From assembly GCA_000309945.1 (NCBI GenBank), contig CM001633.1, forward strand, positions 1,770,292 to 1,834,291: DNA of 64,000 bases, in the 5' to 3' direction. Under the pieces are notes generated by a model. The model searched no databases, was not told where the DNA came from, and saw only the letters and a list, made by a program, of their open reading frames with translations. This document shows positions 33,643 to 37,515 of this stretch, piece by piece (position 1 is the first letter of the stretch; every line of letters starts with the position of its first letter). The position numbers were made by a program, and so were the translations under genes. Source of the stretch: Leptolyngbyaceae cyanobacterium JSC-12. Lineage in GTDB: Bacteria > Cyanobacteriota > Cyanobacteriia > Leptolyngbyales > Leptolyngbyaceae.

Positions 33643-34626
33643 ATGTCTGCAATTCTGGCTGAAAACCTTAGCAAATTTTATCCCGTTGCAATCAAGGAAC
33701 CGGGGCTAAAAGGCACCCTCCGGCATTTCTTCCGGCGCACCTACCGTAACATCAAGGCAGTCCAAAACATTTCCTTTCAAATTGAACCAGGCGAAGTTGT
33801 AGGCTTTTTGGGAGCCAACGGAGCAGGCAAAACGACTACCCTGAAGATGCTCACCGGGTTGATTCACCCCTCCGAAGGCAAAATTAATGTCGCAGGACAT
33901 GTGCCGTTTCAGCGTAAATCCCCCTTTCTTAAAAAAATTACGCTGGTGATGGGGCAAAAGCAGCAATTGATTTGGGATTTACCAGCGCTGGATTCACTCC
34001 GAATTAATGCGGCGGTTTACGGGATCAGCGATCGCGAGTTTCTGCGACAGGTTGATGAGTTAACGGAGATGCTTTCTCTGGAAGGAAAATTATCTCAACC
34101 TGTGCGCAAACTGTCCTTGGGTGAGCGGATGAAAGCAGAATTATTGGCGGCACTGGTGCACCAACCCCAAGTGTTATTTCTGGATGAACCGACTCTAGGG
34201 CTAGATGTGAATGCTCAAGTCAGTGTGCGGGACTTTTTGCGGGAATATAACCAGCGCTACCAGGCAACTGTTTTGCTTACGAGCCACTACATGGCAGATA
34301 TTACTGCTCTTTGCCAGCGGGTTTTGGTGATTCATCAGGGTCAGTTGATTTACGATGGCAGTTTAGATGGATTGGTGCATCGGTTCGCACCCTGCCGTGA
34401 AATTGAAGTGGAACTGGCGAATCCTTATTCCCGCGATCGCCTTGCGGGTTATGGAGATCTGGAAGCGATCGATGGACGGATTGCCAAGTTTTTAGTATCG
34501 CAGGAAGCACTTACCCGTACCGTTGCCCAAATTTTGTCCGATTTAGAAGTCGTGGATTTATCAGTATCGGAACCACCGATTGAAGAAATCATCGGACGAG
34601 TCTTGCAATCAGGATCCGTGGCATGA
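33643..34626 (+). CDS. ABC-2 type exporter ATPase (COG4586-like)
   Basis: About 327 residues. Walker A GFLGANGAGKTTTLKMLTGL, signature LSLGERMKAELLAALVHQP and Walker B VLFLDEPTLGLDVNAQVSVR are intact. A LSLGER signature in place of LSGGQ is typical of the COG4586 group. The N-terminal RHFFRRTYRNIKAVQNISFQ also fits that group. ATG 33643 is preferred over TTG 33631. It overlaps the permease gene by 4 bp (ATGA). The exported substrate is unknown. Confidence 0.92.
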   Translation: MSAILAENLSKFYPVAIKEPGLKGTLRHFFRRTYRNIKAVQNISFQIEPGEVVGFLGANGAGKTTTLKMLTGLIHPSEGKINVAGHVPFQRKSPFLKKITLVMGQKQQLIWDLPALDSLRINAAVYGISDREFLRQVDELTEMLSLEGKLSQPVRKLSLGERMKAELLAALVHQPQVLFLDEPTLGLDVNAQVSVRDFLREYNQRYQATVLLTSHYMADITALCQRVLVIHQGQLIYDGSLDGLVHRFAPCREIEVELANPYSRDRLAGYGDLEAIDGRIAKFLVSQEALTRTVAQILSDLEVVDLSVSEPPIEEIIGRVLQSGSVA

Positions 34627-35429
34627 GTCAAACTACCCCCTTCAAAAAAGTCTGGCGTATTGCAACTACACTTCTGTCTGTTTACTATGCCTACATGCTG
34701 GAGTACCGGGCAGAATTGCTGCTGTGGGTGTTATCTGGCTCTCTACCCATTATCCTCATGGGCATCTGGATTCAAGCATCACGCACAGGGCATTTTTCCC
34801 TCACGCCTGTTGAATTTGCCCGTTACTTTCTGGCAGTCTTCCTGGTACGCCAATTCACCGTCGTCTGGGTGATTTGGGAGTTTGAGCGGGAAATCGTTGA
34901 AGGTAAATTATCGTTTCGGTTACTGCAACCTCTCAATCCCATCTGGCATCATTTCGCCTCTCATTTTGCTGAACGATTTGCTCGTTTGCCCTTTGCATTT
35001 GTTCTCGTCACATTCTTTTTCTGGCTGTATCCCCAAGCATTTTGGATTCCTGATGGGGGGCAGTTGTTTCTGGCATTGCTGGTTATTTTCTTGGCGTTTG
35101 CCTTGCGCTTTCTAATGCAATACACACTGTCGATGGCTGCTTTCTGGACGGAGCGCGCTAGCTCGTTGGAGCAGTTTGGCTTTTTGTTTTATTTATTTCT
35201 GTCAGGAATTATTGCACCGCTGGATGTATTTCCGCCGCTGGTTCGAGAAATTGCCCTCTGGACACCCTACCCTTACTTAATTTACTTTCCTGCTAATTTA
35301 TTGGTAGGGCTGCCTGTGGATCTGGGGCGAGGGCTATTGGTAATGTTGGGATGGAGTGTGGGCTTGTATATGCTTTATCGCTGGCTATGGCGCAAAGGAT
35401 TGCGTCAGTATTCGGGAATGGGGGCTTAG
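34623..35429 (+). CDS. ABC-2 exporter permease 1 (COG4587/DUF990-like)
   Basis: 268-residue membrane protein with about six helices. VYYAYMLEYRAELLLWVLSG and WVIWEFEREIVEGKLSFRLL are typical of this permease group; PLDVFPPLVREIALWTPYPY lies in the second half. It is coupled to the ATPase by a 4-bp overlap. Its partner permease is at 36733, beyond an oppositely oriented gene whose end overlaps this stop by 4 bp. Confidence 0.9.
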   Translation: MSQTTPFKKVWRIATTLLSVYYAYMLEYRAELLLWVLSGSLPIILMGIWIQASRTGHFSLTPVEFARYFLAVFLVRQFTVVWVIWEFEREIVEGKLSFRLLQPLNPIWHHFASHFAERFARLPFAFVLVTFFFWLYPQAFWIPDGGQLFLALLVIFLAFALRFLMQYTLSMAAFWTERASSLEQFGFLFYLFLSGIIAPLDVFPPLVREIALWTPYPYLIYFPANLLVGLPVDLGRGLLVMLGWSVGLYMLYRWLWRKGLRQYSGMGA

Positions 35430-36559
35430 TTTGGACTGGGCTGTTGTTCTTGGCGCTTGATGCCTTCGATATTGGTGTGGTCTTCCAGATAGTCCAGAAG
35501 CTTGAGAAAGTCAGTGCGCGGCAGCGATCGCCCACCAATTTCCCGAAACGCCAACTGTGGCTTGCCATTCTCAACAATGTGATAGCCCCAATAAAGTAAC
35601 TGCTTACTATAGCGAATTGCCACCATATCGGGATCAATGTAATGGCAACGCGCATCCTCTGCCATCATCCGCTCAAATTCGGTTTTTAGTAAGCTATTGA
35701 GGATGTTGTTTCGGCGATCCTCATCGCTGTGATAGTTGTTAATTAGCACGAACAGTTCAGCAGTTTCGTTGAGCCGACGAATTGCTGTGAAGGTTCGCTT
35801 AATCACATCAGCATTCTTATTGATTCCCAGCGGGTTGAGTGTCGTGGGAATAATGCAATAGTTGAACTTTTTGAGGAACTCTTCTGGATTGGCGTCATAT
35901 TCGGGGCTACAGTCGCAAATCACCACTCGTGCATCAGGGTATTCTTCTTCGTTCCACTCGCTGTAGTTCAAGACAGTGATGGTTGCGCCTAGTTGTCCCT
36001 TTGGACCTGGGAGATACACCCCATCTCCCAGCAGTTTACGCAAATTGCTCTGCCGATCCAGGTCAATTAACACTACATCGTAACCATTTAAGGCAAATGC
36101 TCCTGCTAGATGAGCGCTGATAGTGGTTTTACCAACGCCACCTTTGCAGGTAAACACGCCGATGTAGGTTAGTTTTGGGCGCGGAGGAGGGGCAGGAATT
36201 TCGCCATCTTCCCAAATAATTTGATTGTCTCGGAAACTGCCCAGCGCAATGTCAACCACTTCTTCGGTTCGCATGAAGGTGAAGACAGAGGGAGTATAGC
36301 CCGATGCAGAGATCAAAAATCCCCGATTAAACCGGGCAGACATAGGCTGTTCCAGAAAATCTATAAATTTCTCCAATTGTCCGGCATGAACTTTGGCTCG
36401 CTGATTGCGGACTTGTACGGCAACACATTCGCCGTCCCGTTCCAGTTCGATGTCGTAGCCTTGGGTTCCCGGCGGGGCTAACTTTGCCGTCCAGCCTTCT
36501 TGCTCAAACAGGCTGACGAGAACCTTCTCGAAGTCAGATGAATGCTCAAACTGTGACAT
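35426..36559 (-). CDS. Nuclease-like (Mrr fold) domain fused to a ParA-type ATPase
   Basis: 377 residues. Residues ~1-110 resemble restriction-endonuclease-like (Mrr/PD-(D/E)xK) domains: FEKVLVSLFEQEGWTAKLA, GTQGYDIELE with D36, and CVAVQVRNQRAKVHAGQLEK. The usual catalytic lysine of Q-x-K is replaced by arginine (Q49-V-R51), so cleavage activity is doubtful. Residues ~130-375 are a ParA/MinD-type ATPase: deviant Walker A FTCKGGVGKTTISAHLAGAF (139-146 core), VVLIDLDRQSNL, and VVICDCSPEYD. The two parts are joined by a proline-rich linker (IPAPPPRPK). It lies, reversed, between the two permease genes of an ABC-2 exporter. Function unknown; DNA partitioning or genome defence are guesses. Confidence 0.85.
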   Translation of the reverse strand: MSQFEHSSDFEKVLVSLFEQEGWTAKLAPPGTQGYDIELERDGECVAVQVRNQRAKVHAGQLEKFIDFLEQPMSARFNRGFLISASGYTPSVFTFMRTEEVVDIALGSFRDNQIIWEDGEIPAPPPRPKLTYIGVFTCKGGVGKTTISAHLAGAFALNGYDVVLIDLDRQSNLRKLLGDGVYLPGPKGQLGATITVLNYSEWNEEEYPDARVVICDCSPEYDANPEEFLKKFNYCIIPTTLNPLGINKNADVIKRTFTAIRRLNETAELFVLINNYHSDEDRRNNILNSLLKTEFERMMAEDARCHYIDPDMVAIRYSKQLLYWGYHIVENGKPQLAFREIGGRSLPRTDFLKLLDYLEDHTNIEGIKRQEQQPSPN

Positions 36560-36732
36560 GGGCTTCTGTTGACCGCAATTCGCCAGAGGGGTAAAGGTCG
36601 CTTATAGAGATTATCTCAAACCTGACCAAAGGCAAAGTACCGTCTTCCGTACATTTGCGATCGCAGGTTACCACTAATGCGCAATTGGCGACCGCTATAG
36701 AATCATAAGTAGCCTTCTATCTCCTCTGGCTC

Positions 36733-37515
36733 ATGAAACGCTATTGGCAAGTTTTGAAACTATTTTGGGCAACAGCACTAGCTGCCGAATTAGAGTATCG
36801 AATTAACTTTTTAATTGCAACACTCAGCAGCATTGGTGGGTTAATAGGCAGCCTGTTTGGGTTATTTCTGTTTTACCGAACAGGTTACAGCTTTCAAAAT
36901 TGGAATTGGGATCAGGCATTGATTGTCCTCGGATTGTTTACTCTTTTGCAAGGGTTTTCAGCTACTTTTTTGGCTCCAAATTTGAACCGAATTGTCCGGC
37001 ACATCCAGCAGGGCACCTTAGATTTTGTTTTATTAAAGCCAATCAATTCACAATTCTGGCTGTCAACTCATACTCTCTCACCCTGGGGTTTGCCAGATTT
37101 ATTATTTGGTGTGCTGATTATCTTAATTGCCGGAAATCGCCTGGGGGTGCATGTGAGCAATTACTTCATAGGATTGCTACCCATTTTCTTGGGTTTTGTA
37201 ATCCTCTATAGCTTGTGGTTTATGTTAGGGGCAATGAGTATCTGGTTTGTCAAAATCTACAATGTGACGGAAGTACTGCGAGGTTTGCTAGAAGCCGGAC
37301 GGTTCCCAACGGTCGCGTATCCCATGGGATATCGGATCTTTTTCACCTTTGTGGTACCAGTTGCGTTTTTGACAACAGTGCCAGCGGAGGTAATTTTGGG
37401 ACGGGGCAATTGGCACTGGGTTGCGGGAGCAGCGATTTTAGCAGGAGTCTTGCTTTGGCTATCCAGTGCTTTCTGGCGGTTTGCGCTACGGTTCTATACC
37501 AGTGCATCGAGTTAG
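36733..37515 (+). CDS. ABC-2 exporter permease 2 (COG3694-like)
   Basis: 260-residue membrane protein with about six helices. LKLFWATALAAELEYRINFL at the N-terminus parallels the start of permease 1, and LNRIVRHIQQGTLDFVLLKP and AVTVPAEVILG-like LTTVPAEVILGRG are typical of the group. It presumably completes the heteromeric exporter with the ATPase at 33643 and permease at 34623, though it is 1.3 kb away and must have its own promoter (upstream 36560-36732). Confidence 0.9.
   Translation: MKRYWQVLKLFWATALAAELEYRINFLIATLSSIGGLIGSLFGLFLFYRTGYSFQNWNWDQALIVLGLFTLLQGFSATFLAPNLNRIVRHIQQGTLDFVLLKPINSQFWLSTHTLSPWGLPDLLFGVLIILIAGNRLGVHVSNYFIGLLPIFLGFVILYSLWFMLGAMSIWFVKIYNVTEVLRGLLEAGRFPTVAYPMGYRIFFTFVVPVAFLTTVPAEVILGRGNWHWVAGAAILAGVLLWLSSAFWRFALRFYTSASS

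What the first reader, a model, noticed from the sequence alone, without database searches (positions are those of the whole stretch)
35426..36559. Nuclease-like/ParA fusion nested inside an ABC-2 exporter locus
One gene joins an Mrr-like PD-(D/E)xK domain to a ParA/MinD ATPase through a proline-rich linker and sits in reverse orientation between the two permease genes of one exporter. The usual catalytic lysine is arginine (Q49-V-R51), suggesting a DNA-reading rather than DNA-cutting head steered by a ParA ATPase. The stop overlaps the first permease stop by 4 bp, so the arrangement is tight. I know of no named system with this make-up.
Basis: partly seen in the sequence, partly recalled or inferred. 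Interest (0 to 1): 0.68.

Follow-up and report, generated by a model that had tools for sequence, protein, structure and literature searches.

The report
ParA ATPase with fused pseudo-nuclease head
A bacterial positioning-type ATPase is joined to a DNA-cutting-enzyme fold whose cutting site has decayed in this lineage; the fusion is a real, uncharacterised gene family, but its place beside an exporter looks like a local accident.

Summary
The gene is real: 377 aa, minus strand 35426-36559. Residues 1-119 are an Mrr-type REase fold (Pfam Mrr_cat 5e-9; AlphaFold model matches AF1548, Z 12.3). Residues 131-365 are a ParA/MinD ATPase with all five motif residues checked intact. The fusion is a patchy chromosomal family: 43 loci in at least six phyla, 11 of 386 cyanobacterial genomes, no match in the plasmid or phage collections. 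The ABC-2 link is weak: tail-to-tail with the first permease in 11 of 17 carrying genomes of the window's family, between both permeases in 4, and no such permease seen beside the homologues compared outside it. Arg51 is real but local. In other subfamilies the PD-QxK triad D36/Q49/K51 is among the head's most conserved positions (ranks 7, 4, 2 of 109); in the Leptolyngbya-type plus Acidobacteria clade it is not (51, 42, 76), though 6 of 14 cyanobacterial members keep the whole triad. The window's head stays under purifying selection and is acidic (net -8; its paralogue +5), which weakens 'DNA-reading'. Best reading: an orphan ParA-type ATPase whose ancestral nuclease head became, here, a pseudo-nuclease that binds a partner.

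The parts
35426..36559 (-). Mrr-ParA fusion gene, 377 aa
   Evidence: 96-97% identical in the nearest genome
36203..36559 (-). residues 1-119, Mrr-type PD-(D/Q)xK (REase) fold head
   Evidence: Pfam Mrr_cat 5e-9; AlphaFold mean pLDDT 86.5 for residues 1-126; 1y88 Z 12.3, rmsd 2.4 over 106 residues
36407..36454 (-). active-site positions D36, Q49, R51 (PD-QxK with K replaced by R)
36170..36202 (-). proline-rich linker, residues 120-130
   Evidence: sequence; pLDDT < 50 at 120-126
35465..36169 (-). ParA/MinD-type ATPase, residues 131-365; deviant Walker A FTCKGGVGKTT at residues 136-146
   Evidence: CbiA 4e-15; Foldseek to FleN, ParF, Soj; K139, K144, D166, D168, D216 in 73 of 73 full-length homologues
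33646..34626 (+). ABC exporter ATPase (neighbour, not counted as part of the system)
   Evidence: ABC_tran 1.7e-28
34623..35429 (+). first ABC-2 permease (neighbour)
   Evidence: PF06182 1.7e-16
36733..37515 (+). second ABC-2 permease (neighbour)
   Evidence: PF06182 2.9e-69

Best explanation
A stand-alone ('orphan') ParA/MinD-type ATPase with its partner-specifying module fused to it: an N-terminal Mrr-type REase domain. ATP binding makes the ParA parts pair as a sandwich dimer (inferred from the family and the intact motifs), which brings two heads together and holds the complex on the nucleoid until hydrolysis releases it. In most other subfamilies the head keeps a full PD-QxK site and would act as an ATP-gated dimeric nuclease on DNA. 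In the window's copy the head has lost the catalytic lysine (K51 to R), is acidic and is still conserved; there it most likely works as a pseudo-nuclease that binds a partner, probably a protein, and lets the ATPase cycle place or regulate it. Shown by computation: the two folds, the fusion, intact ATPase residues, weaker constraint on the triad in this clade, purifying selection, charge difference. Inferred: dimerisation, nucleoid binding, nuclease activity of relatives, partner binding. The ABC-2 exporter probably plays no part.
For: Fold of both halves. K139, K144, D166, D168, D216 invariant in 73 of 73 full-length homologues. D36/Q49/K51 entropy ranks 7, 4, 2 of 109 head positions in 32 distinct sequences of the other subfamilies, against 51, 42, 76 in 27 of the clade with the window. 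Position 51 has the largest gain in variability of all 109. Of 1140 triples drawn from the 20 positions conserved elsewhere, 9, the observed one included, reach the observed sum. Head dN/dS 0.008 against the nearest relative. Net head charge -8 in the window's copy, -9 to -3 in 14 cyanobacterial clade sequences, +5 in its own paralogue, mean +2.8 in 32 others. No match in plasmids or phages and no neighbour cluster shared across the main clades.
Against: D36 and Q49 remain in the window's copy, so activity with Arg is not excluded. Of the 14 acidic heads 7 keep K51 and 6 the whole triad, so charge and loss of the triad do not go together strictly. The Acidobacteria part of the clade, in which 0 of 13 keep the triad, is not acidic (mean +2.2). 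Net charge is not surface potential. The clade was picked from the tree after the losses were seen; its support is 87 SH-aLRT on a quick tree, and neither triple test corrects for kinship. A second dN/dS comparison (L061) was saturated. No partner was found.
Confidence: 0.43

Rival explanations
1. DNA-reading head: the REase fold binds a DNA site or structure without cutting, and the ParA ATPase positions or bridges that DNA, as the N-terminal DNA-binding domain of type Ia ParA proteins does (recalled).
For: REase fold kept while the triad is less constrained; ParA proteins commonly bind the nucleoid; D36 and Q49 kept. In the Acidobacteria part of the clade, where the triad is gone, heads are not acidic.
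Against: The head is net acidic in 14 of 14 cyanobacterial sequences of the clade, -8 in the window, while the same-genome paralogue is +5.
Confidence: 0.23
2. Still an active ATP-gated nuclease: Arg51 stands in for Lys and the protein cuts DNA.
For: D36, Q49 and E11 kept; R is the commonest state at 51 in the clade (14 of 27), not a random residue; 6 of 14 cyanobacterial clade members keep the whole triad.
Against: In the other subfamilies residue 51 is K in 31 of 32 and residue 49 is Q in 30 of 32; within the clade D36 also becomes N, T or S and residue 51 also S, V, L or F.
Confidence: 0.14
3. Anti-invader (restriction) effector: an Mrr-type type IV nuclease regulated by a ParA-like NTPase.
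For: Mrr-cat domains of PD-QxK type are found in modification-dependent restriction enzymes (PMC12707154, passages) and Mrr-NTPase fusions exist (PMC11037411, passages); one homologue (L033) lies beside a methyltransferase and, by the PADLOC tally, one type II restriction enzyme is among the neighbours.
Against: Among 143 near neighbours the PADLOC models hit more than once are mad3 (8, as many as the ABC ATPases), mad2 (3), two PycC models (2 each) and AriA (2); which neighbours hit mad2, PycC and AriA was not resolved, and the other 58 of 63 models have at most one. No match in plasmid or phage records.
Confidence: 0.14
4. Part of the ABC-2 exporter: a localisation or regulatory ATPase for that transporter.
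For: Within 600 bp of the tail of the first permease in 11 of 17 family genomes with the gene; between both permeases in 4.
Against: At least 3 of the 17 carry it elsewhere (G399, G409, G410). 37 of 42 family genomes have each permease but 17 have this gene; in 14 of the 25 without it the two permeases lie within 120 bp of each other. No such permease seen beside the homologues compared outside the family.
Confidence: 0.05

Closest known systems
ParA/MinD (deviant Walker A) ATPases: ParF, Soj, FleN, McdA
   Same: Fold, KGGVGKT motif, acidic residues of the ATPase site; orphan status as in PpfA or ParI (PMC9178275, passages)
   Different: N-terminal REase-fold head, a C-terminal part with invariant YWG; both genes next to it in the window are permeases, not a partner gene
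Mrr-cat PD-QxK nucleases (EcoKMrr, MspJI) and AF1548 (1y88)
   Same: Fold of residues 1-119 and QxK order of the site (PD-QxK of Mrr and MspJI in PMC12707154, passages)
   Different: Fused to ParA rather than to a winged-helix or SRA reader; K replaced by R in the window
wH-Mrr-NTPase and RAMA-Mrr-NTPase fusions (PMC11037411, passages)
   Same: Mrr catalytic domain joined to an NTPase
   Different: They carry a modification-reader domain; the passages seen do not call their NTPase ParA; no such reader was found here by Pfam
PADLOC candidate PDC-M28B
   Same: Weak hit through the ParA part (5.6e-7)
   Different: Six cyanobacterial members read carry KGGVGR, not KGGVGK; their N-terminal parts were not scanned against Pfam
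NA-iREase1 (PF22722, NACHT-associated inactive REase)
   Same: 6 of 37 family members match weakly, best 5e-4
   Different: The window's copy does not match at 0.01

Membership tests
ParA/MinD ATPase | Deviant Walker A with signature lysine and acidic residues of the ATPase site | tested here: met
   K139, K144, D166, D168, D216 in 73 of 73
ParA/MinD ATPase | ParA fold | tested here: met
   Foldseek to FleN, ParF, Soj, E about 1e-8
ParA/MinD ATPase | ATP-dependent dimerisation and nucleoid or membrane binding | not testable with these tools
   biochemistry needed
ParABS partition system | Adjacent parB-type partner gene | tested here: not met
   Both genes adjacent in the window are ABC-2 permeases. 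No ParB-specific search of the homologues' neighbours was run; the Pfam tally shows 25 of 141 families, none ParB
Mrr-type PD-QxK nuclease | REase fold | tested here: met
Mrr-type PD-QxK nuclease | Complete D...QxK site | tested here: not met
   D36 and Q49 present, residue 51 is R in the window; D, Q or E, and K all present in 33 of 59 distinct homologues
Mrr-type PD-QxK nuclease | DNA cleavage | not testable with these tools
   assay needed
ABC-2 exporter component | Conserved linkage with the permeases | tested here: not met
Anti-phage defence system | Recurrent defence-gene neighbourhood | tested here: inconclusive
   143 neighbours scanned; a few PADLOC models hit 2 to 8 neighbours, not resolved
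Anti-phage defence system | Carriage on plasmids or phages | tested here: not met
   no match at 1e-20 in plasmids or 1e-10 in phages

The most novel reading that the evidence does not exclude
A two-copy ATPase system in which one paralogue is an ATP-gated dimeric nuclease and the other, the window's copy, is its acidic pseudo-nuclease counterpart: a decoy, inhibitor or heterodimer partner that tunes where the active copy cuts. In G000 and G397 a copy with the full triad and a basic head (+5) lies divergently beside a recJ-like gene, while the R51 acidic copy (-8, -9) lies at the exporter. [quoted passage not shown] Against it: four R51 genomes (G399, G409, G410, G418) show no second copy.
Probability: 0.11. 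Interest if true: 0.68.

Novelty: new variant of a known kind. Interest (0 to 1): 0.42.

Why it matters
ParA/MinD ATPases normally meet their cargo through a separate, very diverse partner protein, and orphan members are hard to assign (PMC10241942, passages). Here a candidate partner-specifying domain is covalently attached, so the cargo question can be tested on one polypeptide. The family also offers a natural series of nuclease heads (full triad, partly lost, replaced) on an ATPase that keeps its site, for asking what such a head does beyond cutting.

Tried and rejected
Exporter link: rejected by distribution. Conserved operon partner: clustering of neighbours gave local synteny only, e.g. 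AhpC/TSA-family and DUF481 genes in Acidobacteria and a metallophosphoesterase-like gene in a second cyanobacterial subfamily; names of clusters without a Pfam call are my reading of the sequences. Defence island: PADLOC scan of 143 neighbours, left inconclusive. PDC-M28B membership: not accepted, its members read carry KGGVGR. Viral carriage: 4 weak matches in viral contigs, none reaching into the head beyond residue 115. Link between R51 and a second copy: G000, G397, G400 and G396 have both, but G399, G409, G410 and G418 have R51 and one copy, and the second copy of G400 has N at 36, so no rule. Promoter scan 36400-36800: 0 sites, 0.3 expected. In VIA-align a family that is not listed is not excluded. 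A survey paper on the PD-(D/E)XK superfamily was not held.

Rows dropped or capped: 8 ORF fragments under 340 aa are not among the 73 full-length ORFs; 61 of the 73 are distinct; L025_2 (frame begins at a contig end) and L035_30 (head cut) were left out of the 59-row counts. The 43 loci include two contig-end halves from one genome (L014, L043). The 143 neighbours are up to two ORFs of at least 90 aa on each side in loci L004-L046 without L014 and L043; two ORFs over 900 aa and frames cut by contig ends were left out. Pfam and PADLOC tallies show the first 25 of 141 and 63 families. The unrestricted random test gave 22 of 100000 triples but ignores regression to the mean; the restricted one gave 9 of 1140. 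After checking, confidence of the best explanation went from 0.45 to 0.43, of the rivals up by 0.01 each and of the novel case from 0.12 to 0.11, because the Acidobacteria heads are not acidic and the PADLOC hits are unresolved.

Full report
OBSERVATION. The ORF is present as described: 35426-36559 on the minus strand, 377 aa. It is convergent with the first ABC-2 permease (34623-35429), sharing 4 bp with its stop, and lies 173 bp before the second permease (36733-37515). Pfam gives Mrr_cat at residues 8-98 (5e-9, above the curated cut-off) and CbiA and AAA_31 from residue 132 on (4e-15, 2.3e-12).

FOLDS. AlphaFold2 on alignments of 37 family members gave mean pLDDT 86.5 for residues 1-126 and 85.2 for the whole chain, with low confidence in the linker at 120-126. 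The head's order of elements is H-E-E-E-H-E-H-E-E. VIA-align of Foldseek's matches put AF1548 (1y88) first, Z 12.3 with rmsd 2.4 over 106 residues, then PaqCI, a CRISPR ancillary nuclease, LlaBIII, a Pyrococcus repair endonuclease (NucS, name recalled) and MspJI at Z 9.1 to 9.8; Foldseek ranked 1y88 and MspJI at the top. Foldseek on the whole model returned FleN, ParF and Soj at about 1e-8.

FAMILY. A scan of 84,980 species genomes with the window protein returned 43 loci (two of them contig-end halves from one genome) in Cyanobacteriota, Acidobacteriota, Pseudomonadota, Thermodesulfobacteriota, Verrucomicrobiota, Nitrospirota and one bacterium without a phylum. The scan needs exact short peptide patterns, so it reaches close relatives only. 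In a spread sample of cyanobacteria 11 of 386 genomes had a match at 1e-20, in the window's own family 17 of 42 (the copy of G389 belongs to another subfamily), in the Acidobacteria phylum sample 2 of 297, one being the genome used as centre. In the cyanobacterial sample 14 of 15 matches begin within the first 13 residues of the query; the fifteenth begins at residue 32, in an ORF that carries a head. In 23 genomes searched again with the family profile, 26 of 26 matches begin by model position 12. No match in 72,556 plasmid records at 1e-20 or 50,697 phage records at 1e-10. Of 37 members, 37 match CbiA and 33 match Mrr_cat at 0.01. The fusion is thus the rule in this family.

CONTEXT. In the window's family the gene lies within 600 bp of the tail of the first permease in 11 of 17 carrying genomes (G000, G397, G398, G400, G060, G415, G416, G417, G419, G420, G421). 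In G396 it is 2.3 kb from that permease. In G418 gene and permease are on different contigs (cannot tell), in G399, G409 and G410 the gene is elsewhere, and in G389 no first permease was found. It lies between both permeases in 4 (G000, G397, G400, G396). In 14 of the 25 family genomes without the gene the two permeases lie within 120 bp of each other, and in G410 the gap between them holds an RNA-binding protein and a ribosomal-S21-like gene (my reading of the ORFs). Among 143 near neighbours of the loci the ABC-2 permease family has 10 members; one search places exactly ten permease neighbours, all in the Leptolyngbya-type loci L004-L012 and L023, so none seems left for the other phyla. Elsewhere the neighbours differ from clade to clade. 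The PADLOC tally is not clean: mad3 8 (as many as the ABC ATPases), mad2 3, two PycC models 2 each, AriA 2, and single hits including a type II restriction enzyme and methyltransferases. The nesting is therefore local synteny; a defence context is neither shown nor fully excluded.

ACTIVE SITE. Mrr-cat domains carry a PD-QxK site (PMC12707154, passages). Here the positions are D36, Q49 and residue 51. Among 73 full-length ORFs residue 51 is K in 48 and R in 20, residue 36 is D in 58 and residue 49 is Q in 64. On a quick tree of 61 distinct sequences the losses cluster in a clade of Leptolyngbya-type cyanobacteria plus Acidobacteria (support 87), with 9 changes at 51 and 8 at 36 over the whole tree. 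Outside the clade (32 sequences) the triad ranks 7, 4 and 2 of 109 head positions in conservation; inside (27 sequences) it ranks 51, 42 and 76, while E38, E63, G80, S84, G87, S91 and E99 are invariant. The whole triad is present in 33 of 59 sequences: 27 of 32 outside, 6 of 14 in the cyanobacterial part of the clade and 0 of 13 in its Acidobacteria part (from the states). Position 51 shows the largest gain in variability of all 109; 9 of 1140 triples of positions conserved elsewhere reach the observed sum. The five ATPase residues never vary. Against its nearest relative the window's head has dN/dS 0.008; a second comparison was saturated. So the window's head is constrained although its catalytic lysine is gone.

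CHARGE. The window's head has net charge -8; the 14 cyanobacterial sequences of the clade run from -9 to -3. The 13 Acidobacteria average +2.2 and the 32 others +2.8. In the same genomes the second copies have +5 (G000), +5 (G397) and +8 (G400), and +1 in G396. This weakens a DNA-reading role for the window's copy and suggests a protein partner, with the limits that net charge is not surface potential, that 7 of the 14 acidic heads keep K51 and 6 the full triad, and that the Acidobacteria heads, which lost the triad, are not acidic.

MECHANISM. Shown by computation: the folds, the fusion, an intact ATPase site, weaker constraint on the triad in this clade, continued selection on the head, a charge difference. 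Inferred from the ParA/MinD family: ATP-dependent dimerisation that brings two heads together, and a nucleoid-bound cycle. In relatives with the full triad this would gate a dimeric nuclease; in the window's copy it would present a non-cutting head to a partner. Orphan ParA proteins with diverse cargos are described (PMC9178275 and PMC10241942, passages).

NOVELTY. Searches of the held library for ParA or MinD together with Mrr, restriction-endonuclease domain, the Pfam names or 'nuclease domain' showed no title or abstract about this fusion; two searches listed 20 of 67 and 15 of 56 papers, and most subscription papers are not held. Mrr-NTPase fusions with reader domains are noted in PMC11037411 (passages). 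PMC7159879 (passages) describes MinD/ParA-like domains predicted inactive, and inactive enzyme versions, in conflict systems; the ParA part here keeps its motifs. I file it as a new variant of a known kind: a ParA/MinD-type ATPase with an unusual fused head.

Noticed in passing
G000:C1:110275-111357 (L079:8252-9394): Second copy of the fusion in the same genome, 47% identical, with the full D-QxK triad and a basic head, divergent from a recJ-like gene (my reading of the sequence); the same adjacency is seen in G397, G396 and G400.
   Followed up: partly
L028:7914-10694 and L030:7914-10708: Tandem duplicates in two Acidobacteria with strongly degraded active sites (N-K-V and N-K-F; N-R-L and N-K-F at 36, 49, 51) while the ATPase motifs stay intact.
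   Followed up: partly
L011:2878-4031, L063:1489-2642, L027:8001-9203: Copies broken by a frameshift or internal stop, possibly sequencing errors: a Leptolyngbyaceae MAG (apparently seen twice, as L011 and L063) and Hyella patelloides.
   Followed up: no
L033:9841-11528: Just downstream of the homologue in Chromatium okenii lie a 255-aa ORF and a DNA-methyltransferase-like ORF, probably the type II restriction-modification pair of the PADLOC tally.
   Followed up: no
L093:823-3399 (G410): An RNA-binding protein and a ribosomal-S21-like gene (by eye) lie between the same two ABC-2 permease genes, so this junction takes up unrelated genes.
   Followed up: partly
G000:C1:3994332-3994931: The genome also has an 896-aa open frame with a ParA-like stretch matching PADLOC candidate PDC-M28B (1.2e-39); six other cyanobacterial members read carry KGGVGR.
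   Followed up: no
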